This document shows, one piece after another, positions 20,312-31,895 of a stretch of 32,540 bases of DNA (within the stretch, counting starts at the first letter, position 1; every line of letters begins with the position of its first letter). The notes beneath the pieces were generated by a model. That model made no database searches. It had not been told where the DNA came from and was given only the letters and a program-made list of their open reading frames with translations. Source of the stretch: Thermoleophilaceae bacterium. Its GTDB lineage: Bacteria; Actinomycetota; Thermoleophilia; Solirubrobacterales; Thermoleophilaceae. A program made the position numbers and the translations under genes. Where the stretch lies: the NCBI GenBank assembly GCA_016929195.1, contig JAFGJG010000009.1, forward strand, positions 1 through 32,540, read 5' to 3'.

Positions 20312-20707
20312 CTACGCGGCCGCTTCCGTCGCCGCGGCAACACTCGTGAAGGTCTCGACCTTCGCGGCCAGGCCGTCGTCATCGATTGTCCACATCCAAA
20401 CCATGGACGTGGACAACGCGATGTCGCTGCCGCTCCCGTGCGTGACCAATCTCGCCGGTGCGATCACCTTGTTGCCGACGGCGATGAACTCCCCGGGCTC
20501 GACGCGGAGGTCTACGGCCTCAACCTGGCTCTCCCACACGGCCCGGAGCTCCTCCTTCCCGCGTACGACAGGCGAGTCGGCCTCAGCTTGCGACAGGAAC
20601 CGCTCCCACGTGATGTCGTCGCTCACGGCGGCCAGCGCGGCGTCGAAGTCACGCCGGTTAAAGGCGTCGATGCCTTCTCGGATCAGCTCGATGTTCCGCT
20701 CAGACAT
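20312..20707 (-). CDS. SnoaL/NTF2-like protein (single domain), inside the element
   Basis: 131 residues with the usual layout: N-terminal SERNIELIREGIDAFNRRDFDAAL, DDITWE, VRGKEELRAVWESQ, then a curved sheet (IAVGNKVIAPARLVT, SMVWMWTIDDDGLAAKVETF). NTF2-like folds form a hydrophobic pocket and act as isomerases, hydrolases, cyclases or binding proteins; no catalytic residue can be assigned here. It lacks the C-terminal AVGLS tag of its chromosomal relatives. The start is ATG 20707, preceded by GATACT at 7 nt, the hexamer common to the paralogues. The overlapping + strand frame is rejected. Confidence 0.8.
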   Translation of the reverse strand: MSERNIELIREGIDAFNRRDFDAALAAVSDDITWERFLSQAEADSPVVRGKEELRAVWESQVEAVDLRVEPGEFIAVGNKVIAPARLVTHGSGSDIALSTSMVWMWTIDDDGLAAKVETFTSVAAATEAAA

Positions 20708-21547: not shown

Positions 21548-22540
21548 TTGGGCGAAAAGAAGGCCGATCTGGTGCGTTTCAGGGAGTGGCTGCGGTACGT
21601 CGAACACGACCGGGGCCGGAAGCGTTCGACGGTCCGCGACTTCCGCAACGCGGTCAGCGGGCGGCTGGTGCCCGAGTTTGGCGACGCGCGTGTGGAGGAC
21701 GTGGACGTGGAGCGGGTCGATCGTTGGCGGTCCCAACTACTTGCGGAGGCGGGTCTGAGCCCTCGCACCGTGAACAAGCTGCTGGTGATCCTCAGCGGGA
21801 TCTTCAAACGGGCCGGGCGGGTGTACGGGCTCGGGAGGAACCCGGTTGCCCAGGTGGACCGCCAGCCCCAGAAACGGTCGGACGACTTCCGGACCCTCAC
21901 GGCCGGCGAGGTTGTGCAGCTGGCAGCCGCGGCCGAGTCGGACCAGGACGCCGTGATGTTCGTCGTAGCAGCGTTCACCGGGTTGCGGCTCGGGGAGCTG
22001 CGGGCGTTGACGTGGGGGGACGTGGACTTCACGAAGGCGCTGCTTCACGTCCGCCGGTCGTACACGAAGGGTGCGGAGGGGCTGCCGAAGTCGGGCAAGG
22101 TGCGGAGCGTCCCTCTGATCGACCGGGCGGCGCGCGCCCTGGACGGGCTGAGCCGCCGCGACCACTTCACGGGCCGCGACGACTTGGTGTTCTGCACGTC
22201 GACCGGCGGGTTCGTGGACGACACGAAGCTGCGCCGCCGCTACTACGCGGCGCTTCAGCGCGCCGGACTGCACAGGATCCGCTTCCACGACCTGCGGCAC
22301 GTGTTCGGCACGATCGCGGTGCAGGCGTTCCCGCTCAGCGACGTCAAGGCTTACATGGGCCACAAGGACATTTCGACGACGATGGTCTACGTCCACCACG
22401 TCCCGCAGCACGAAGCCGCCGACCGACTCGGGCAGGTGGTGGAGGCGGCGACCGACCCGTTCGCCGGGAACGTCTCCCCAAATGTCTCCCGAACTGAGGA
22501 GAACTCAGCAGTTCTGAGCGCAACCAGGTCTGCGGTCTAG
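21548..22540 (+). CDS. int: Tyrosine-type site-specific integrase
   Basis: 330-residue phage-type integrase that would insert the element at tRNA-Met. It has a SAM-like core-binding domain (about 5-105: FREWLRYVEHDRGRKRST, SPRTVNKLLVILSGIF) and a catalytic domain with Arg147 (TGLRLGEL), Lys184, His247 and Arg250 (FHDLRH), His272 (MGHKDIST) and Tyr281 (VYVHH). All nucleophile and activator residues are present. The proposed start is TTG 21548; GTG 21570 is an alternative. No separate arm-binding N-terminal domain is obvious, but residues 1-20 are short and basic. The C-terminal tail NVSPNVSRTEE is encoded by the TCTCCC repeat pair. It ends 35 bases before attR. Confidence 0.92.
   Translation: MGEKKADLVRFREWLRYVEHDRGRKRSTVRDFRNAVSGRLVPEFGDARVEDVDVERVDRWRSQLLAEAGLSPRTVNKLLVILSGIFKRAGRVYGLGRNPVAQVDRQPQKRSDDFRTLTAGEVVQLAAAAESDQDAVMFVVAAFTGLRLGELRALTWGDVDFTKALLHVRRSYTKGAEGLPKSGKVRSVPLIDRAARALDGLSRRDHFTGRDDLVFCTSTGGFVDDTKLRRRYYAALQRAGLHRIRFHDLRHVFGTIAVQAFPLSDVKAYMGHKDISTTMVYVHHVPQHEAADRLGQVVEAATDPFAGNVSPNVSRTEENSAVLSATRSAV
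22473..22491 (+). repeat. Paired TCTCCC-C/G repeats in the integrase 3' end (possible arm sites, right)
   Basis: TCTCCCC at 22473-22479 and TCTCCCG at 22485-22491, period 12 bases, about 85-100 bases inside attR. They mirror the pair next to attL and encode the near-repeat NVSP-NVSR of the integrase tail. Role as integrase-binding sites is inferred. Confidence 0.4.
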
Positions 22541-24323: not shown

Positions 24324-24728
24324 CTACTCCGACAGGCCCACGGCTTCGAGGGCCTCTTGGCGATCCATGAAGATCCGGACTCGGCTGATCTTGCCTCCGA
24401 CGAGGTCGTAGACGTTCGTTATCGGTGTTGCGTCCGTGACCTGCAGGCCGCTTGTTCGCCCGCTGCCGGTGACCCGCAGGAAGGCGAGTACGCGGCCCGG
24501 GCGAATCGTTTCCGCTCGCTCGAGCTCGAGTCGGAAGTCGGGACCAACGTCCTCGAGGTCCGAGAACCACCGCCGGATACCCGATGGGCCGTCGTACACG
24601 CCGCCGATGCTGGCCAATGGTGTGTGGATCTCGATGTCCGGCGTGCAACACGCCAAGTAGCCGTCGAGGTCCCGGGCATTGACGGCCCCGACCGCTCGCT
24701 CGATGACTTCCGCGTTCTCCCGCGACAT
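24324..24728 (-). CDS. SnoaL/NTF2-like protein (single domain, AVGLS tag)
   Basis: 134 residues from ATG 24728. Typical layout: SRENAEVIERAVGAVNARDLDGYLA, CCTPDIEIHTP, VYDGPSGIRRWFSDLEDV, then strands with SGLQVTDATPITNVYDL and GGKISRVRIFMD, ending EALEAVGLSE. The conserved Asp/Glu and aromatic residues lining the pocket fit polyketide-cyclase-like or steroid-isomerase-like folds, but activity is unknown. GATACT ends 9 nt before the ATG. Longer upstream frame (to 24941) is rejected as the paralogues all start at the MS(R/Q)xN motif. Confidence 0.82.
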   Translation of the reverse strand: MSRENAEVIERAVGAVNARDLDGYLACCTPDIEIHTPLASIGGVYDGPSGIRRWFSDLEDVGPDFRLELERAETIRPGRVLAFLRVTGSGRTSGLQVTDATPITNVYDLVGGKISRVRIFMDRQEALEAVGLSE

Positions 24729-24737
24729 GGCCCGCCG

Positions 24738-24743
24738 AGTATC
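24738..24743 (-). promoter_or_regulatory. GATACT element 9 nt before NTF2-like gene
   Basis: Minus-strand GATACT followed by CGGCGGGCC and the ATG. Context GGGGATACTCGG matches the other copies. Inferred leaderless -10. Confidence 0.5.
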
Positions 24744-24802
24744 CCCGAGGGGGACCAGCCGCACCAGTCCCGCACGCCAGCGCGTGTCGGCGAGGGGGTG
24801 AC

Positions 24803-24901
24803 TCAGCCGGGCTGGACCAGCAGCGTCGTCAGGCCGCCGATCACGAACAGCACCATGAACACAGCAAGCGCGATCCACACGATACGAGCTGGGAGCGTCA
24901 T
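24803..24901 (-). CDS. Putative 32-residue single-pass membrane protein
   Basis: ATG 24901 opens a 32-residue frame: TLPARIVW, then a 20-residue hydrophobic stretch (IALAVFMVLFVIGGLTTLL) and a short tail VQPG. The composition is what a small membrane peptide looks like and is unusual for a chance GC-rich frame. GAGGAT lies 6 nt before the ATG and could serve as -10 or partial SD. It sits between two NTF2-like genes on the same strand. No homologue is known to me. Confidence 0.45.
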   Translation of the reverse strand: MTLPARIVWIALAVFMVLFVIGGLTTLLVQPG

Positions 24902-24954
24902 GGTCCGATCCTCGCAGGTCGGAGGGGGCAGGGGAACCCAACGCCGGACGGGAC

Positions 24955-25812
24955 TCAAGCGCTCTTCGGCGGTTGTTCCGACAGCCCCACGACTTCGAGG
25001 GCCTCGTCCGGATCGGAGAAGCCCTTTCGGTAGATCACCTTGCCGTCACGGAGCCTGTAGAGCTCCGCATGGCGTTCGTCCATCTGGAGGCCGCTCTCGC
25101 TGCGACCGGTCTCGCGGAAGATCAGGATGACCTGGTCGTCGCCGGCGTCGATGAATCGTTCTGGCTCGATCTTCCAGTCGTCCCACTGCTCCGCCCACCG
25201 CATGGCGTGGTCCACGAGTGCCTCGTGCCCGCGGGCGATCGCCCCGTCAGGAAGATTCGTTCCGTCCCACTCGATGTCGGGATCACAGAACGAGAGCCCG
25301 CTCAGCGGGTCGTCCCCGAGGAAGGCATCCCACATCCGGCGCACGATCTCGACGTTCTCCTGCGACATAGCCTGCTCCGACAGGCCCACGGCCTCGGGGC
25401 CGTCGCCGCTGAGTCCGAGCGCGTGAAGCGCACCGTTCGCGGTCAGGTGATCCTCGACTCGGATGAGTCGTCCGTGGCGAAGCCAGCAACAGTGGTAGAG
25501 GTCGCCGTCAATCGCGATGCCGCTCAGGCGTCCCTCGGCCTCGAGGTGTCCATGGACAAGGACGCGATCATCGCCAACCGCCCGCGCGTCCTTGACCACG
25601 TACTGGTAACGCTTCCAAGCCGCCCGGTACTCGCTGAGGAAGTCGACTATCTCGTCGCGTCCGTGGCAGGGCCTCGCCTCCGGGAACTTGCGGACGGGGT
25701 AGTAGTCGCCATCCGAATCCCAGAATCGATCCGCGGTCGCGATGAGCCGTTCGGAGTTGTCGGGCCACTCGCCGTAGTACCGCCGCACCGCATCCACGTT
25801 CGCTTGCGACAT
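24955..25812 (-). CDS. Two-domain SnoaL/NTF2-like fusion protein
   Basis: 285 residues. Domain 1 (about 1-135) begins SQANVDAVRRYYGEW and ends ANGALHALGLS; then GPEAVGLSEQA leads straight into MSQENVEIVRRMWDAF, the start motif of domain 2 (about 149-285), which ends DEALEVVGLSEQPPKSA. The internal Met plus the preceding C-terminal tag show that two tandem genes were joined in frame. Pocket-type residues differ between domains: domain 1 is rich in His/Tyr (GDLYHCCWLRHGR), domain 2 has SGLQMDERHAELYRLRDGKV. The start is ATG 25812 with GATACT 9 nt upstream. Function unknown; internal re-initiation at the second Met is possible. Confidence 0.82.
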   Translation of the reverse strand: MSQANVDAVRRYYGEWPDNSERLIATADRFWDSDGDYYPVRKFPEARPCHGRDEIVDFLSEYRAAWKRYQYVVKDARAVGDDRVLVHGHLEAEGRLSGIAIDGDLYHCCWLRHGRLIRVEDHLTANGALHALGLSGDGPEAVGLSEQAMSQENVEIVRRMWDAFLGDDPLSGLSFCDPDIEWDGTNLPDGAIARGHEALVDHAMRWAEQWDDWKIEPERFIDAGDDQVILIFRETGRSESGLQMDERHAELYRLRDGKVIYRKGFSDPDEALEVVGLSEQPPKSA

Positions 25813-25821
25813 CGCCTCCCG

Positions 25822-25827
25822 AGTATC
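25822..25827 (-). promoter_or_regulatory. GATACT element 9 nt before the fused NTF2-like gene
   Basis: GATACT, then CGGGAGGCG and ATG. The gap contains GGGAGG, so an SD is possible here too. Read as the common NTF2-family -10. Confidence 0.5.
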
Positions 25828-25888
25828 CCGCCTGGGCTGGCGAGCCGCGACCACCCGCCGGTACCCCGCCTCACACAGACACCGCTTC

Positions 25889-26185
25889 TTGGCCATTTCT
25901 GGAGAGGGGACAGGGGAGGCCCGACCGGCCGCAACCCGTGTCACCCCGCGGTACTCGCTGTTCACCCCCAAGACCCTCAAGATCCTCGCGGCCGTCACGC
26001 TCGTGTTGCTCGCCGCCGGCGCCGCGATCGGCTCGGACAACGACGTGCTATGGACCCTCGACGACGTCGTCTTCTTCGCGCTCATACTCAGCGTGCTGGC
26101 GCTGATCGTCCTGACCGTGGGGACGCTCCGTGAAGTCGCGCACGACCTCGCGAAACGCGTCCATGCAGCCGACTGGCCGATCTGA
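25889..26185 (+). CDS. Small two-helix membrane protein
   Basis: 98 residues from TTG 25889, the only start available before the hydrophobic core. Two transmembrane segments are clear: LKILAAVTLVLLAAGAAIG (about 29-48) and VVFFALILSVLALIVLTVG (about 59-78), followed by a basic cytosolic tail (LREVAHDLAKRVH). The first 25 residues are hydrophilic. No domain is recognised. It diverges from the fused NTF2-like gene. The unusual TTG start lowers confidence in the N-terminus, not in the coding call. Confidence 0.55.
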   Translation: MAISGEGTGEARPAATRVTPRYSLFTPKTLKILAAVTLVLLAAGAAIGSDNDVLWTLDDVVFFALILSVLALIVLTVGTLREVAHDLAKRVHAADWPI

Positions 26186-26288
26186 CCCGGTCGGCTAGTC
26201 GCTCATGCGGGCTCGGCCCTCCCTGCCTGACAGACTGCCCGATCCTTGACTCGCAAACCAATCGCGACTCTGCAAGGGAAGGATCTCG

Positions 26289-27131
26289 ATGGCCACGATC
26301 ACCGCGCGTGAGCAGCAGCAGATCGAGCACGCGAACTCCAGCGGCCGGACGCCGGCAGTCTTCATCCACGGGCTCTGGCTGCTGGCAAGCAGTTGGGACA
26401 ACTGGGGAGAGCTGTTCGCCGAGGGCGGCTACGCCCCGGTGACGCCATCGTGGCCCGACGATCCCGAGACCGTCGAGGAGGCCCGCGCGACCCCGGATGT
26501 GTTCGCGAAGAAGACGCTCGGGCAGGTCGCCGACCACACGGCCGAGGTCATCGGGGCCCTCGACAAGAGGCCTGCGGTCCTGGGCCACTCCACCGGCGGG
26601 CTGCTTGCACAGATCATCGCCGACCGGGGCCTGTCAGCCGCGACCGTCGCGATCGATCCTGGCCCCTTCCGCGGCGTGCTGCCGGTCCCGATCTCGTCGC
26701 TGCGGTCGGCGGCCCCGGTGCTGCGGAGCCCTCTCAACCGCGGCAAGGCGATCACCCTGACCCTCGATCAGTTCAAGTACGGGTGGGCGAACGCGCTCAG
26801 CGACGAAGAGGCGAGGCAGCTCTACGAGACCTACCACGTGGCCGCTCCGGGTGAGGCGCTGATGCAGATGGTGAACGCGAACCTGAACCCGTGGACCGAG
26901 GCGAAGCTCGATCCGAAGAACCCCAACCGCGGGCCGCTCCTGATCATCGACGGCGAGAAGGACCACACCGTGCCGTGGACGATCGCCAACGCCTCGTACA
27001 AGCGCCAGCGGCACAACGAGGCGGTGACCGAGATCGAGAAGATCCCGAACCGGGGGCACTCGCTCACGATCGACAGCGGCTGGCGCGAGGTGGCCGAGGC
27101 CGCCCTGGCGTTCGTGAAGCGCTTCGCCTGA
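26289..27131 (+). CDS. Alpha/beta-hydrolase
   Basis: 280-residue alpha/beta-hydrolase. Oxyanion-hole motif VFIHGLW (His27-Gly28), nucleophile elbow LGHSTGG (Ser101), acid in DGEKDHTVP (Asp225) and His257 in NRGHSLTID are all present, so it should be active as an esterase, lactonase or related enzyme. No signal peptide, so cytosolic. The cap region (about 130-200) includes the Asn/Pro-rich NANLNPWTEAKL. AAGGGAAGGA lies upstream of the ATG as SD. The family resembles actinobacterial non-heme chloroperoxidase-like hydrolases, but substrate is unknown. It stands alone, flanked by small membrane proteins. Confidence 0.88.
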   Translation: MATITAREQQQIEHANSSGRTPAVFIHGLWLLASSWDNWGELFAEGGYAPVTPSWPDDPETVEEARATPDVFAKKTLGQVADHTAEVIGALDKRPAVLGHSTGGLLAQIIADRGLSAATVAIDPGPFRGVLPVPISSLRSAAPVLRSPLNRGKAITLTLDQFKYGWANALSDEEARQLYETYHVAAPGEALMQMVNANLNPWTEAKLDPKNPNRGPLLIIDGEKDHTVPWTIANASYKRQRHNEAVTEIEKIPNRGHSLTIDSGWREVAEAALAFVKRFA

Positions 27132-27206
27132 GCAACCCCTCGGGATGCTCGGCCGGCGACGTCGCAGTGGGGTCGAGAGCGACGCTCGCTTCTATGAGCA
27201 GCGGCT

Positions 27207-27362
27207 CTAGTCGCCGTTAGTCCGGCGTAGCGCCAGCCAGAACAGCACGATCCCGGATGCGACGAAGCCGTACACGATCCACCAGCCGGCCTCGTCCGAG
27301 ATCCCGAGTCCCCCGAGTGCGATCTTCTCAAGATCGCAACCAGAGCCGGGCGGCCGAGGCAT
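27207..27362 (-). CDS. Putative 51-residue membrane protein
   Basis: ATG 27362 gives 51 residues: a Pro/Gly-rich start (PRPPGSGCDLEK), then ISDEAGWWIVYGFVASGIVLFWLALRRTNGD, a convincing single transmembrane helix with a WW interface and a positive inside tail. No SD or -10 stands out. It is divergent from the 54-residue membrane protein, whose start is 12 bases away and whose -10-like sequence overlaps this ATG. No family is known. Confidence 0.5.
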   Translation of the reverse strand: MPRPPGSGCDLEKIALGGLGISDEAGWWIVYGFVASGIVLFWLALRRTNGD

Positions 27363-27367
27363 ACGGT
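27362..27367 (+). promoter_or_regulatory. -10-like TACGGT before the 54-residue gene
   Basis: TACGGT ends 7 nt before GTG 27375, the same spacing as other putative leaderless starts here. It overlaps the ATG of the opposite-strand small gene. Confidence 0.35.
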
Positions 27368-27374
27368 CCCGTTC

Positions 27375-27539
27375 GTGGAGCTTCACTCTTGGGCAGGTGC
27401 GGCATTGATCGTCGCCATGCTGGGCGGCGGAAGCATCGAGCTGCTTCTCAATCGGCGGAAGCAGCGAGACCGCCGGCCCGCCCGGGCGCGGCCGGAGCGG
27501 GGTCTCAGCCGCCGGCCGGGCCTGAGCCGCGGTCCCTAG
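27375..27539 (+). CDS. Putative 54-residue membrane protein
   Basis: GTG 27375 gives 54 residues: a short hydrophobic helix (HSWAGAALIVAMLGGGSIELLL) followed by a very basic tail (NRRKQRDRRPARARPERG). The topology would put the tail inside. A 7-nt gap to TACGGT and the exact CTAG stop shared with the NTF2-like fusion on the other strand support it as a gene, but it is too small to confirm by eye. Confidence 0.45.
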   Translation: MELHSWAGAALIVAMLGGGSIELLLNRRKQRDRRPARARPERGLSRRPGLSRGP

Positions 27540-28348
27540 GCGTTCTCCGCGTCCAGCAGGTGCGACAGGCCGACGGCGGCCAAGGCCTTCTCCCGCTGGC
27601 CGAAGCCCTGGCCCCGGACGATCACTCCGTCACGCAGCGTCCAGAGCTCCCCGATCTGCACCTCCACCTCCGCGCTGCTGCCGGCGGGCCGCCTTCGGAT
27701 CGTCACGAACACGACGACGTGGTCGCCGGCGGAGAAGATCCGCTCGGGCTCGTAGACGGTCGCCTCGAACGGAGTCTCCAGGTCCTCGACGAACCGCCGG
27801 ACCGCATCGGGGCCCCGGTAGACGCCGGCGCGCGGGTGGCGCGGATCCGTCTCCCACTCGATGTCCGGGCCCATCAACCCGAGGGCCTGATCCCAGTCGC
27901 CGCTGTTGAACGCGTCGTAGAGCGTCCGGACAACAGCCTCGTTGTCCGGTGACAGCCCAGCGACCGCCAGGGCCTCCTCCCAGGACGGGTAGAAGCGGGC
28001 CCTGCCGATCTTGCCGTCGCGGAAGTCCCAGGCGACGCTCCCCATCGGCTGGCGGACCGGCATCCCGGAGCCACTGATGCGGCCCGAGAGCTCCCCGAGC
28101 CAGACGACCCGCTCGCCGCAGTCGCGGATCTCGGCGGTGACGACCGTGAATTCCTCGAAGCTGTCGCTCCAGCCCGCCATCAGCTCACGGATCCCGTCGT
28201 GGCCCCGGAAACCGTCGGCGCTGTCCGGCGAATCCGGGAACGGAAACCAGATGACGTCTTCCGTATAGAACGCGAGCAGGGTCTCGACTCCCTCGGAGTT
28301 CCAGGCCTCGACCGCCCGCGTCAACGTGTCGACGTTCGCCTGTGACAC
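27536..28348 (-). CDS. Two-domain SnoaL/NTF2-like fusion protein
   Basis: 270 residues from GTG 28348. Domain 1 (1-about 133): SQANVDTLTRAVEAWNSEGVE, YTEDVIWFPF, FRGHDGIRELMAGW, AWDFRDGKIGRARFYPSWEEALAVAGLS. Domain 2 begins immediately with PDNEAVVRTLYDAFNSGDWD, then MGPDIEWE, VYRGPDAVRRFVEDL, and ends REKALAAVGLSHLLDAENA. The AVAGLS of domain 1 is the hinge, as in the other fusions. It starts 3 bases after the stop of the upstream NTF2-like fusion, so the two form an operon and no separate promoter element is seen. Its stop shares CTAG with the convergent small protein. Function unknown. Confidence 0.83.
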   Translation of the reverse strand: MSQANVDTLTRAVEAWNSEGVETLLAFYTEDVIWFPFPDSPDSADGFRGHDGIRELMAGWSDSFEEFTVVTAEIRDCGERVVWLGELSGRISGSGMPVRQPMGSVAWDFRDGKIGRARFYPSWEEALAVAGLSPDNEAVVRTLYDAFNSGDWDQALGLMGPDIEWETDPRHPRAGVYRGPDAVRRFVEDLETPFEATVYEPERIFSAGDHVVVFVTIRRRPAGSSAEVEVQIGELWTLRDGVIVRGQGFGQREKALAAVGLSHLLDAENA

Positions 28349-28351
28349 GGC

Positions 28352-29155
28352 CTATTCGGCCCGCCCCGCCGCCCTGAGGGCCTCGTCCTTCGTCTGGAAC
28401 AGCCGCGCGCGGTGTATGAGGCCGTCCCGGAATGTCCAGAGGTTCGCCACCTTGGCGACCGTATGGATGCCGCTGCTCTTGCCCTGCGCCTGGAAGAGGT
28501 TCACGGTGAGCAGCCGGCCGCCGCCGCAGTCGATCACCTCGGCGAACTCGATCCTGGCCTCGTGCCACGCCTCCCACATGGAGCTCAGGAGCCCGAGGAC
28601 CTCGACCGGGCCGGAGTAGACGCCTCTGAAGGGCCCGCGCGCGCCCGTGAAGTCGATCACGACGTCGTCGTGGAGGCAGGCCACTGTGCCCTCGCCGTCC
28701 TGGCGGCTCCAGCTCTCCCGCCACCGGTTCAGCAGCTCCACGTGCTCGCGTGACGGCGCCGACAGCCCCACGGCGTCGAGGGCGGCGGGGAGGTCGCGGC
28801 CCCACTCGAACGACACGACCCTGCCGTTCCGGAAGGTCCACGTGTGGGCCTCGTCCTGGGCCAGCTCGGCGCCGCTGTCCCGTCCACGGGCGTGGAAGGT
28901 GACGGACGCCACCACCGCGTCGCCGGCATCGAAGAGCTCGCGAACGGTGTGCTCGGCCGTCTCGAACGAGCGGGACAGGTTGTCGAGCGCCTCCAGGACC
29001 TCGGCGGCGCCGCGTCTCGTGCCCGGCTCGACAGCCTCCGGAGGGTTGATCCACACCGCGTCGTCGTCGAGCAGGTCGCGCAGGAGCTCGGGCGCGCGAT
29101 CGACCGCTCCCGTCTCGTAGAGCCTCCGGACGATCTCCACGTTCTCCCGTGCCAC
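28352..29155 (-). CDS. Two-domain SnoaL/NTF2-like fusion protein
   Basis: 267 residues from GTG 29155, chosen because the paralogue motif ARENVEIVRRLYE starts there; a longer frame to 29428 would cover the divergent crotonase gene. Domain 1 (1-about 137) holds LLDDDAVWINP, HTVRELFDAGDAVVAS, THTW-like HTWTFRNGRVVSFEW and ends LPAALDAVGLS. Domain 2 starts APSREHVELLNRWRESWSRQD, with HDDVVIDFTGARGPFRGVYSG and ends TKDEALRAAGRAE, a diverged tag. First gene of a two-gene operon. It has the best promoter of the set: TTCACA-17-GATACT-8-GTG. Substrate unknown. Confidence 0.82.
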   Translation of the reverse strand: MARENVEIVRRLYETGAVDRAPELLRDLLDDDAVWINPPEAVEPGTRRGAAEVLEALDNLSRSFETAEHTVRELFDAGDAVVASVTFHARGRDSGAELAQDEAHTWTFRNGRVVSFEWGRDLPAALDAVGLSAPSREHVELLNRWRESWSRQDGEGTVACLHDDVVIDFTGARGPFRGVYSGPVEVLGLLSSMWEAWHEARIEFAEVIDCGGGRLLTVNLFQAQGKSSGIHTVAKVANLWTFRDGLIHRARLFQTKDEALRAAGRAE

Positions 29156-29163
29156 CGCCCGGG

Positions 29164-29192
29164 AGTATCCCCGGTGCCGACGGGACTGTGAA
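29164..29192 (-). promoter_or_regulatory. Promoter TTCACA-17-GATACT for the NTF2-like operon
   Basis: On the minus strand TTCACA (29192-29187, 5 of 6 to TTGACA) is separated by 17 nt from GATACT (29169-29164), which ends 8 nt before GTG 29155. This is the most complete sigma-70 type promoter among the family and supports reading GATACT as the -10. The divergent crotonase gene starts 51 bases away; AACAGT at 29192-29197, 9 nt before its ATG, may be its own -10. Confidence 0.6.
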
Positions 29193-29206
29193 ACAGTCCG
29201 CCGACC

Positions 29207-30064
29207 ATGACCGTCGAGCTGGAAGTCAGGGACCGCAAGGCCTACGTCACGCTCAACCGGCCGGAACGCCTGAACGCCATCACCGCGGAGATGGCGCGTG
29301 ACCTCGCCGACGTCGTGAGGCAGGCGAACGAGGACGACCGGGTCCGCGTCCTGATCGTCCAGGGAGCCGGCCGGGCCTTCAGCGCCGGCTACGACCTGAA
29401 GGTCTACGCCGAGCAGGGGGAGGCGCACCAGCCACCCGTCTGGGATCCGATCAAGGACTACCTCGGGATGAAGGCCAACACGGACAGCTTCTTCTCGCTG
29501 TGGCGGTCACCGAAGCCCACGATCGCCAAGGTCCGCGGGTACGCCGTCGCGGGCGGCAGCGACATCGCGCTGTCCTGCGACCTGATCGTGATGGCGGAGG
29601 ACGCCCGCATCGGCTACATGCCCGCCCGGGTGTGGGGGTGCCCGACGACGGCGATGTGGGTGTACCGGCTCGGACCGGAGCGCGCCAAGCGCATGCTCCT
29701 GACCGGCGACACGATCGACGGCCGGCAGGCGCGCGACTGGGGGCTCGTGATCGACGCGGTGCCCGAGGCCGAGCTGGACGCGGCCGTCGAGCGGCTGGCA
29801 GACCGGATGGCCGGCGTGCCGATCAACCAGCTCGTCATGCAGAAGCTGATGATCAACCAGGCGCTCGACAACATGGGCCTGCAGTCCACTCAGACGATCG
29901 CCACGCTGTTCGACGGCATCACGCGCCACTCGCCGGAGGGCCGGTGGTTCGTGGAGTTCGCCGCCGAGCACGGCTTCGACGAGGCGGTGCGCTGGCGCGA
30001 CGAGGGACGCTTCATCCCGGACGGCGGCGGACCGATCCCGACCGAGGAAGAGCTGCGCGACTAG
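29207..30064 (+). CDS. Crotonase-superfamily protein lacking both usual catalytic Glu
   Basis: 285-residue enoyl-CoA hydratase/isomerase-like protein. The CoA/oxyanion regions are typical: LNRPERLNAI, GRAFSAGYDLK, VAGGSDIALSCDLI. However, where hydratases carry GQPE and then an Ala-Met-Glu helix, this reads YMPARVWG and ERAKRMLLTGD. By eye the two catalytic glutamates are Ala and Arg. It should still bind an acyl-CoA thioester and form the oxyanion hole, but plain hydration is doubtful; isomerase, hydrolase or dehalogenase-type chemistry is possible. The start ATG 29207 is divergent from the NTF2-like operon; its stop shares CTAG with the next NTF2-like gene. Confidence 0.88.
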   Translation: MTVELEVRDRKAYVTLNRPERLNAITAEMARDLADVVRQANEDDRVRVLIVQGAGRAFSAGYDLKVYAEQGEAHQPPVWDPIKDYLGMKANTDSFFSLWRSPKPTIAKVRGYAVAGGSDIALSCDLIVMAEDARIGYMPARVWGCPTTAMWVYRLGPERAKRMLLTGDTIDGRQARDWGLVIDAVPEAELDAAVERLADRMAGVPINQLVMQKLMINQALDNMGLQSTQTIATLFDGITRHSPEGRWFVEFAAEHGFDEAVRWRDEGRFIPDGGGPIPTEEELRD

Positions 30065-30453
30065 GTCAGGCCCACGGCCTCGAGGGCCTGACCGCGCTCC
30101 TGGTACATGCTCATGTTCGCCAGCCTGCCGCCGCGGACCGTCCAGACGTGCGTGACGCGGGCGGACACCTCGATGTCGTCACGCCCCCGCATGTGGAGGG
30201 TCACGGGTACGACGACGTGGTCGCCGGCGTCGATGAACTCGTGCGGCTCAAAGCGGCGCGACTCCCAGGCCGCCGCGAATCCCTCCCAGAAACGCTGCAC
30301 CTGACCGGCGGAGTAGACGCCGCGGAATGGCCCCTCGGCACGCGACATGTCGAGCTCGAAGTCCGGGGTTGCCGTGGCGAGGATGGACTGCCAGTCACTC
30401 CGGTTCCATGACTGGAGGGCGGCCTGGACGAGCTCGACGTTCGCGCGGGACAC
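30061..30453 (-). CDS. SnoaL/NTF2-like protein (single domain, AVGLT tag)
   Basis: 130 residues from GTG 30453. SRANVELVQAALQSWNRSDWQ, ATPDFELDMS, FRGVYSAGQVQRFWEGFAAAW, HEFIDAGDHVVVPVTLHMRGRDD, VTHVWTVRGGRLANMSMYQ, ending GQALEAVGLT. Full-length single-domain member of the local family. GATACT ends 7 nt before the GTG, within the tail of the upstream hydrolase region. The convergent crotonase gene ends on the same CTAG. Function unknown. Confidence 0.83.
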   Translation of the reverse strand: MSRANVELVQAALQSWNRSDWQSILATATPDFELDMSRAEGPFRGVYSAGQVQRFWEGFAAAWESRRFEPHEFIDAGDHVVVPVTLHMRGRDDIEVSARVTHVWTVRGGRLANMSMYQERGQALEAVGLT

Positions 30454-31445: not shown

Positions 31446-31503
31446 GGGACCCGGAGCGGGACGCGAACTTCGCGCTGCCAACCCGCGGTTCGCGCCGGGT
31501 CCC
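31446..31503. terminator. Long bulged stem-loop between NTF2-like gene and lipoprotein hydrolase
   Basis: GGGACCCGG (31446-31454) pairs perfectly with CCGGGTCCC (31495-31503), and inside it CGCGAAC (31462-31468) pairs with GTTCGCG (31488-31494). Seven bases (AGCGGGA) bulge on the left only. The last base overlaps the NTF2-like stop codon (31505-31503), so it lies at that gene's 3' end and upstream of the hydrolase. There is no T-run, so a terminator or mRNA-stabilising hairpin is inferred. Confidence 0.45.
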
Positions 31504-31895
31504 TACAGAGTCTCCTCGAGCTCTTCCCAGGTCGCGAAGAACGTGATCCGGCGGATCTCGCCCTCCAGCACCTCGCAGCGCGCGCAGGCCTCCTGGATCA
31601 GCTCGAGGCTCGTGGTGCGGCCGCGGGCGACCATCCGGAACGCGATGCCCACCAGATCGTCCCCGTACGTGCGCAGCTCGTGCGGCTCGATTCGGACCTC
31701 GTCCATGGCCTCGTAGAAGGAGTCGAACCAGCGCTGCACCCCCGCCGGGCCGCGGTAGGTGTCGGGCTCCGACGCCAGCTCGGGCGGGGTGATCATCACG
31801 AACTCCTCGTGGACGTAGGGCAGCATCGCCTCGACGCCGCCCTCGGCGAGCGCCCGGAAGGCGTCCCGGACCACCGCTTCGACATCGCCGCTCAC
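31503..31895 (-). CDS. SnoaL/NTF2-like protein (single domain, diverged tail)
   Basis: 130 residues from GTG 31895. SGDVEAVVRDAFRALAEGGVEAMLPYV, HEEFVMITPPE, TYRGPAGVQRWFDSFYEAM, VRIEPHELRTYGDDLVGIAFRMVARGRTT, ending TWEELEETL. The tail replaces EALEAVGLS but keeps the same position. Cys pair ACARCEV in the last strand is unusual in this set. CATACT ends 6 nt before the start. A frame extending to 32135 is rejected because it would overlap the divergent secreted-protein gene. Confidence 0.8.
   Translation of the reverse strand: MSGDVEAVVRDAFRALAEGGVEAMLPYVHEEFVMITPPELASEPDTYRGPAGVQRWFDSFYEAMDEVRIEPHELRTYGDDLVGIAFRMVARGRTTSLELIQEACARCEVLEGEIRRITFFATWEELEETL

What the first reader, a model, noticed from the sequence alone, without database searches (positions are those of the whole stretch)
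24324..30453. AVGLS C-terminal tag is also the fusion joint in three two-domain NTF2-like proteins
Single-domain members end in EALEAVGLSE or ALEAVGLT. In the three fusions, domain 1 ends ALHALGLS...AVGLSE, EALAVAGLS or ALDAVGLS, and domain 2 starts within a few residues. In the 24955-25812 gene the second domain even retains its start motif, MSQENVEIVRR. So tandem genes were fused three times at the same point, and the tag has been kept. It could be a functional C-terminal segment (pocket lid, dimer contact or partner tag) rather than a leftover.
Basis: partly seen in the sequence, partly recalled or inferred. Interest (0 to 1): 0.6.

Follow-up and report, generated by a model that had tools for sequence, protein, structure and literature searches.

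The report
Stop-loss fusions in tandem NTF2-like arrays
In these soil bacteria, many similar small genes sit end to end with only a stop codon and three bases between them, so losing that stop fuses two neighbours at the same point; the shared 'tag' is the protein's last helix, and its final codons probably also act as the ribosome-landing signal for the next gene.

Summary
This genome has 63 SnoaL_2/NTF2-like domains; its only two-domain members found are the three named, all joined right after the ALxAxGL(SE) end. Distinct nearest relatives of the six halves and three different lesions indicate three separate fusions. The 'tag' is not specific to the fusions: it is the last helix plus a Gly-Leu cap, present across 13 related genomes, and also the left half of a ~54-nt gene-joint block (GCCCTCGAAGCCGCCGGGCTGTCGGAG-TAG-GCG-ATGTCGCAGGAGAACGTGGAG) conserved at synonymous sites between paralogues with ~16-36% identical bodies. 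In 71 of 105 tandem pairs the gap from stop to next start is exactly 3 nt, so neighbours share a frame and stop loss fuses them at this point. The 24955-25812 joint is this block with CAG for TAG. GGAG, encoded by the tag's last codons, sits at -10..-7 of the next ATG as a Shine-Dalgarno (SD): array-internal genes are SD-like in 59/73 and have no promoter box (0/73); first/solo genes often carry a GATACT box ~9 nt upstream (76/163; only 5 also SD-like), suggesting leaderless mRNA. The principles are known; the +3 in-frame joint, conserved ends and scale appear undescribed. Ligand unknown.

The parts
30061..30453 (-). single-domain SnoaL_2 gene ending ALEAVGLT; GATACT box at 30466-30461, 7 nt before its GTG
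28352..29155 (-). two-domain SnoaL_2 gene (fusion C), start GTG 29155, GATACT box 29169-29164
28751..28771 (-). joint of fusion C: GTG GGG CTG TCG GCG CCG TCA; two codons shorter than the canonical joint, stop and start codons gone
28349..28354 (-). unfused in-frame joint: TAG (28354-28352) + GCC, directly before the GTG of the next gene (pre-fusion layout)
27536..28348 (-). two-domain SnoaL_2 gene (fusion B), GTG start
27944..27961 (-). joint of fusion B: GCT GGG CTG TCA CCG GAC; about five codons shorter than the canonical joint
24955..25812 (-). two-domain SnoaL_2 gene (fusion A), ATG start, GATACT box 25827-25822, 9 nt before ATG
25372..25395 (-). left half of the joint block in fusion A, GAGGCCGTGGGCCTGTCGGAG CAG, with CAG where other joints have the TAG stop
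25375..25378 (-). GGAG, SD-like, 6 nt before the internal ATG of fusion A
25366..25368 (-). retained internal ATG (MSQENVEIVRR) of fusion A domain 2
24324..24728 (-). single-domain SnoaL_2 gene ending EALEAVGLSE-TAG with the exact G013-type 3' block; GATACT box 24743-24738, 9 nt before ATG
20312..20707 (-). single-domain SnoaL_2 gene of the same cluster, GATACT box, lacks the GL cap
31503..31895 (-). single-domain SnoaL_2 gene, CATACT box, no tag

Best explanation
The tag is the left half of a conserved gene-joint block in head-to-tail arrays of NTF2-like (SnoaL_2) paralogues of Solirubrobacterales. Shown from sequence: the block covers the last ~9 codons of one gene, a TAG stop, one codon-sized gap (GCG) and the first ~7 codons of the next; it keeps stop and start exactly 3 nt apart and in one frame; it is conserved at synonymous sites while the gene bodies have diverged. 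Shown at model level: in the protein, ALxAxGL is the last helix and its Gly-Leu cap. Inferred: the final two codons (xxG GAG) supply the SD of the next gene, so array-internal genes are read by termination-reinitiation, while the first gene of an array or a solo gene is expressed as a leaderless or nearly leaderless mRNA from a GATACT -10 box. Inferred: recombination or gene conversion among near-identical joints helps keep the ends alike and makes the arrays unstable, leaving truncated ends, captured genes and fusions. Because the joint is in frame, loss of the stop yields a two-domain protein joined exactly after the tag. This happened at least three times in this genome, once by TAG to CAG and twice with short in-frame deletions, and once in a sister species. 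Fusion A probably still makes domain 2 separately from its internal SD and ATG. The proteins are most likely small-molecule binding or transforming NTF2-fold proteins; the ligand is unknown.
For: Gap: 71 of 105 tandem pairs in 14 genomes have exactly 3 nt, 66 TAG and 5 TAA. GGAGTAGGNGATG occurs 36 times in G095, 0 in the reversed control; 35 adjoin SnoaL_2 domains, 23 on both sides. In the listed order-wide rows every match spanning both domains outside the own genome contains at least one in-frame stop, nearly always TAG; only own-genome rows have none. Nucleotide constraint: G013 last 6 codons 84% same codon against 38% expected, bodies near expectation; bin54 86% against 39%. Across 14 genomes the last 9 codons match 80% within and 72% between genomes against 39% expected. 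The E of ALE is GAA in 44 of 45 although the family uses GAG 84% of the time. The conservation profile drops sharply at -28 and +27. SD: the base before the last codon is G in 69/71 (24.7 expected), and in 33/35 when the penultimate residue is not Ser (16.1 expected). Array-internal genes 59/73 SD-like and 0/73 box; first/solo genes 76/163 box, 51 of those at exactly 9 nt, only 5 with both. The fusion A joint equals the canonical joint read with TAG=Q. Independent ancestry. Structure. Instability: orphan 3' ends in G013, truncated starts and a phosphoesterase carrying box+MSQENVEIVR in G095. SD inside the upstream coding end at 1-4 nt gaps is described (PMC2784483), and TA-like boxes ~10-12 nt upstream as the mark of leaderless genes in Actinobacteria (PMC3160421).
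Against: Tagged genes NOT followed by a SnoaL gene in array genomes keep GGAG about as often (45/55) as followed ones (52/60); only in genomes with few arrays is it mostly absent (11/38). So inheritance or conversion of the block could explain much of what looks like SD selection. Synonymous conservation from -27 to -6 is not explained by an SD, and no RNA structure was found. Within-genome homogenisation exceeds between-genome only modestly (0.80 against 0.72), so concerted evolution is indicated, not proven. The one unfused pair in the window (28354-28348) has GAATAG rather than GGAGTAG. The own-genome synonymous signal is weak (0.63 against 0.44). No expression data; the genomes used are mostly draft, metagenome-type assemblies, and the single-base change in fusion A could in principle be a sequencing error.
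Confidence: 0.72

Rival explanations
1. Functional C-terminal segment: ALEAVGLSE is kept by protein-level selection as a pocket lid, dimer contact or partner-binding tag, also in the fusions.
For: The tag glycine is the only invariant column and AL the only other near-invariant ones in 17 domains; AL..GL persists in genomes with few arrays, where the GGAG end mostly does not; most solved NTF2-fold chains align only up to about residue 251, before the tag helix 252-258.
Against: Same-codon frequencies at the ends are about twice expectation and GAA is chosen 44:1 against codon bias, which protein-level selection does not predict; the penultimate residue varies while its third base stays G; 40 of 58 own-genome members lack the tag and still match the family.
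Confidence: 0.3
2. Cassette-like exchange: the 54-nt block is the crossover unit by which gene bodies are swapped, duplicated and lost, including capture of unrelated genes; fusions are failed or altered exchanges.
For: Ends near-identical and bodies ~30% identical within one genome; orphan 3' and 5' ends without a SnoaL body; phosphoesterase gene with the SnoaL promoter and first ten codons; the same joint DNA in genomes the tool places in another class.
Against: No chimeric bodies were demonstrated and no dedicated recombinase was linked to the arrays; other-class copies may be contamination; deletion and decay give the same remnants.
Confidence: 0.3
3. The two-domain proteins arose once and were duplicated together.
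For: Two of the three fusions are adjacent, 28352-29155 and 27536-28348.
Against: No two of the six halves are sisters; five have well-supported (93-100) single-domain sisters in other genomes; the joints have different lengths.
Confidence: 0.05
4. TAG at the joint is read through, so arrays are translated as polyproteins and the fusions merely make this permanent.
For: The frame is kept in the 71 pairs with a 3-nt gap.
Against: TAG is the ordinary stop of this family (190 of 241 genes), and 2-nt, out-of-frame joints of the same type exist.
Confidence: 0.05

Closest known systems
SnoaL_2 / NTF2-like single-domain proteins (PF12680; e.g. 3ebt, TerC 6d34, Bal32a 1tuh)
   Same: Sequence family (above the gathering cut-off) and fold: domain 2 of fusion B aligns to 1tuh with Z 17.4, 2.1 A over 120 residues. 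Bal32a itself comes from a mobile gene cassette.
   Different: Extra C-terminal ALxAxGL helix, which most solved chains do not align to; expansion to 44-103 copies per genome, largely in arrays.
Lsd19 (two-domain) and MonBI/MonBII polyether epoxide hydrolases
   Same: Top two-domain Foldseek hits (3rga, 4rzm, 9kw6). Lsd19 has two catalytic domains that do successive steps, while MonBI and MonBII work together in monensin biosynthesis (PMC8827043): a precedent for fused against separate.
   Different: TM-score only ~0.38 because the domain arrangement differs or is uncertain; ~15% identity; catalytic residues and substrate not tested here.
Translationally coupled gene pairs (termination-reinitiation)
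   Same: Short gap; SD inside the upstream coding end, as described for 1-4 nt gaps (PMC2784483).
   Different: The commonest layouts are overlaps of -4 or -1 nt (PMC10666635); here it is +3, in frame, repeated dozens of times per genome between paralogues with near-identical flanking DNA.
Leaderless genes with a TA-like -10 box (PMC3160421)
   Same: Box ending ~9 nt before the start, usually no SD, Actinobacteria.
   Different: An 18-nt version (GATACTGCGCGGGCGATG) is shared by dozens of genes, mostly of one family, in one genome.
Concerted evolution by gene conversion in prokaryotes (PMC6053082)
   Same: Paralogues alike at synonymous sites, somewhat more within than between genomes.
   Different: Limited to the gene ends; that study treats full-length homogenisation.

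Membership tests
SnoaL_2 (PF12680), NTF2-like superfamily | Profile match above the gathering score in each domain | tested here: met
   Window fusion domains 33.5-69.7 bits against 27
SnoaL_2 (PF12680), NTF2-like superfamily | NTF2/cystatin-like fold (helices plus curved sheet) | tested here: met
   Model pLDDT 90.8; Z 15-17 to NTF2-fold chains
Two-domain polyether epoxide hydrolases (Lsd19 type) | Two NTF2-fold domains in one chain | tested here: met
Two-domain polyether epoxide hydrolases (Lsd19 type) | Catalytic acid/base residues and polyether gene cluster | not tested
   Residues not compared; neighbours in the window are an enoyl-CoA hydratase, an esterase and an alpha/beta hydrolase
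Translationally coupled pairs with SD in the upstream gene | Stop and start within a few nt | tested here: met
   71/105 gaps of exactly 3 nt
Translationally coupled pairs with SD in the upstream gene | SD at the proper distance | tested here: met
   59/73 downstream genes SD-like; third base G in 69/71 against 24.7 expected
Translationally coupled pairs with SD in the upstream gene | Second gene's translation depends on the first | not testable with these tools
   Needs reporters
Leaderless genes | -10 box about 10 nt before the start, no SD | tested here: met
   76/163 first or solo genes, 51 at exactly 9 nt, 5 with SD; 62 sites in G095 against 10 in control
Leaderless genes | Transcription start at the start codon | not testable with these tools
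   Needs 5'-end RNA-seq
Integron-type gene cassettes | attC-like folded recombination site | tested here: inconclusive
   No structure in the joint RNA beyond synonymous recodings (mean z -0.06); attC geometry itself not scanned
Integron-type gene cassettes | Integron integrase next to the array | not tested
   A Phage_integrase gene lies at 21548-22540; its class was not determined

The most novel reading that the evidence does not exclude
In Solirubrobacterales, SnoaL_2 genes behave as cassettes with standard ends: a 54-nt joint (last helix, SD, stop, start) and an 18-nt promoter-start element that are homogenised within a genome, shared between lineages, and used by homologous recombination to shuffle, duplicate and fuse ligand-binding bodies, without a dedicated recombinase, at times capturing unrelated genes.
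Probability: 0.25. Interest if true: 0.65.

Novelty: new variant of a known kind. Interest (0 to 1): 0.45.

Why it matters
It gives a direct, readable mechanism for how two-domain proteins arise in bacteria: the unfused in-frame state (TAG+3 nt) exists dozens of times in related genomes beside fused products whose lesions are still visible. It also shows that a strikingly conserved protein 'tag' can be partly a nucleotide-level signal for the neighbouring gene. If the ends really act as recombination units, these arrays (44 to 103 SnoaL_2 matches in 2.1-2.8 Mb genomes) would be a natural shuffling system for small-molecule pockets and could be tested with strain comparisons.

Tried and rejected
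RNA hairpin hiding the SD: a plausible CUC/GAG pairing was seen by eye, but synonymous recodings fold as well (mean z -0.06) and alifold gives -0.26 kcal/mol. Tag as window-specific: rejected. Tag duplicated by the fusion in 24955-25812: rejected, because the G071 relative of domain 1 already ends ALHALGLSGETLEAAGLRE-TAG. G013-type 3' block as a class-wide DNA repeat: the 21-nt pattern with 1 mismatch was found in 1 of 149 sampled genomes, although variants of it are frequent in some. G013 L202 two-domain ORF: not of the tagged subfamily. Literature on SnoaL arrays in Thermoleophilia or Solirubrobacter: nothing relevant found in the held library. Pseudo-dimer arrangement of the fused domains: not decided, interdomain confidence is modest (pTM 0.69 and 0.54). 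Dispersal of the 54-nt block as a class-wide mobile element: no evidence beyond the arrays and their remnants.
Full report
OBSERVATION. All six halves pass the Pfam cut-off. The genome (3.46 Mb, 193 contigs) has 63 SnoaL_2 domains, and the three window genes are the only two-domain ORFs among the 59 read. The end motif ALxAxGL occurs in 18 of 58 own-genome genes and in most array genes of related genomes; its glycine is the only invariant column of a 17-domain alignment.

THE JOINT IS A STANDARD. A search with fusion B in relatives showed neighbouring genes matching both halves with an in-frame stop between them. Reading 246 genes from 14 genomes gave 105 tandem pairs, of which 71 have exactly 3 nt between stop and next start, nearly always TAG GCG ATG (66 TAG, 5 TAA). 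In G095, 35 of 36 GGAGTAGGNGATG sites adjoin SnoaL_2 domains, with none in the reversed control. The conserved block runs from -27 to +26 around the stop with sharp edges. In the window, 28354-28349 (TAG GCC, then GTG) is such an unfused joint.

HOW THE FUSIONS AROSE. Fusion A (24955-25812) reads GAG CAG GCT ATG TCG CAG GAG AAC where the canonical joint reads GAG TAG GCG ATG TCG CAG GAG AAC: aligned with unfused pairs read through with TAG=Q, the joint is the same, GLSEQAMSQENV. Fusion C is two codons shorter and fusion B about five codons shorter than the canonical joint, both without stop or start. A fourth fusion with the same kind of joint (AAGLTERSLASLAREG) is in the sister species G018. 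A tree of 183 domains without the block columns gives each window half its own nearest relative among single-domain genes, five of six with support 93-100; no two halves are sisters. The tree has few columns, so deep branches are not trusted, but a single fusion followed by duplication is disfavoured. The double tag in fusion A is older than the fusion.

WHY THE ENDS ARE ALIKE. Protein level: the model of fusion B shows helix 123-129 (tag), Gly131-Leu132, and the next domain's helix from 134; the same helix closes domain 2 at 252-258, just past the core shared with most solved NTF2-fold chains. Helix-Gly-hydrophobic is the classical Schellman helix cap (general knowledge; contacts in the model were not measured). 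Nucleotide level: in G013 and in C_No_T20_A_bin.54 the last six codons are the same codon in 84% and 86% of same-residue pairs against 38-39% expected, while the bodies sit near expectation at 16-36% amino-acid identity; over 14 genomes the last nine codons agree in 72% of between-genome and 80% of within-genome pairs against 39%. The E of ALE is GAA in 44 of 45 although the family prefers GAG.

WHAT THE LAST CODONS DO. In the joint xxG GAG TAG GCG ATG, GGAG lies at -10 to -7 of the next start. The base before GAG is G in 69 of 71 although the residue varies (S, R, A, P, Q, K, T, L); 24.7 are expected from codon usage. Downstream genes are SD-like in 59 of 73 and never carry the GATACT box; first or solo genes carry the box in 76 of 163, 51 of them 9 nt before the start, and only 5 of the 163 have both. 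This split fits leaderless transcription for first genes (TA-like box about 10-12 nt upstream, PMC3160421) and SD-led reinitiation inside arrays (PMC2784483; PMC10666635). It is inference from sequence. The weak point is that tagged genes with no SnoaL follower in array genomes keep GGAG about as often (45/55 against 52/60), so block inheritance also contributes.

INSTABILITY. G013 has 25 copies of the 3' block (control 0), several with no SnoaL body before them. In G095 the box-plus-start element heads truncated remnants and, once, a calcineurin-like phosphoesterase (PF00149) that begins MSQENVEIVR. The same joint DNA occurs in two genomes that the tool places in the phylum but not the class; transfer or contamination cannot be told apart.

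VERDICT. The 'tag' is best read as the last helix of the family plus the left half of a translational joint shared by tandem paralogues. The principles are known; the +3 in-frame joint repeated at this scale, with nucleotide-conserved ends and divergent bodies, appears to be an undescribed variant.

Noticed in passing
window 25827-25822, 24743-24738, 29169-29164, 30466-30461 (-); G095 62 sites: GATACT box 7-9 nt before NTF2-like starts. Five of the six exact GGGATACTCGG[GC] sites in the own genome lie directly upstream of SnoaL_2 genes; the sixth (C101) has no ATG/GTG in the next ~28 nt. In G095 34 of 62 SATACT-N9-RTG sites head SnoaL_2 genes.
   Followed up: partly
G095 C29:9260-10042 (L166): Calcineurin-like phosphoesterase gene preceded by the SnoaL promoter box and beginning with the SnoaL N-terminal MSQENVEIVR.
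   Followed up: partly
L105, L112, L114, L125 (G013): Orphan copies of the 3' block GCCCTCGAAGCCGTGGGCCTGTCGGAG without a SnoaL body upstream.
   Followed up: partly
G095, whole genome: 103 SnoaL_2 matches in a 2.6 Mb genome, an extreme paralogue expansion; 81 in C_No_T20_A_bin.54 and 44 in G013.
   Followed up: no
G000 C143:29078-29338: SnoaL_2 gene with intact promoter box and start that loses its frame after ~70 residues: pseudogene or assembly error.
   Followed up: no
window 21548-22540 (+): Tyrosine recombinase (Phage_integrase, 95.6 bits) about 2 kb from the cluster, possibly the edge of a mobile element.
   Followed up: no
G395 C129 (L206, L215, L217) and G483 C1 (L208): Arrays with the same TAG-GCG-ATG joint in genomes placed in the same phylum but another class: horizontal transfer or contamination.
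   Followed up: no
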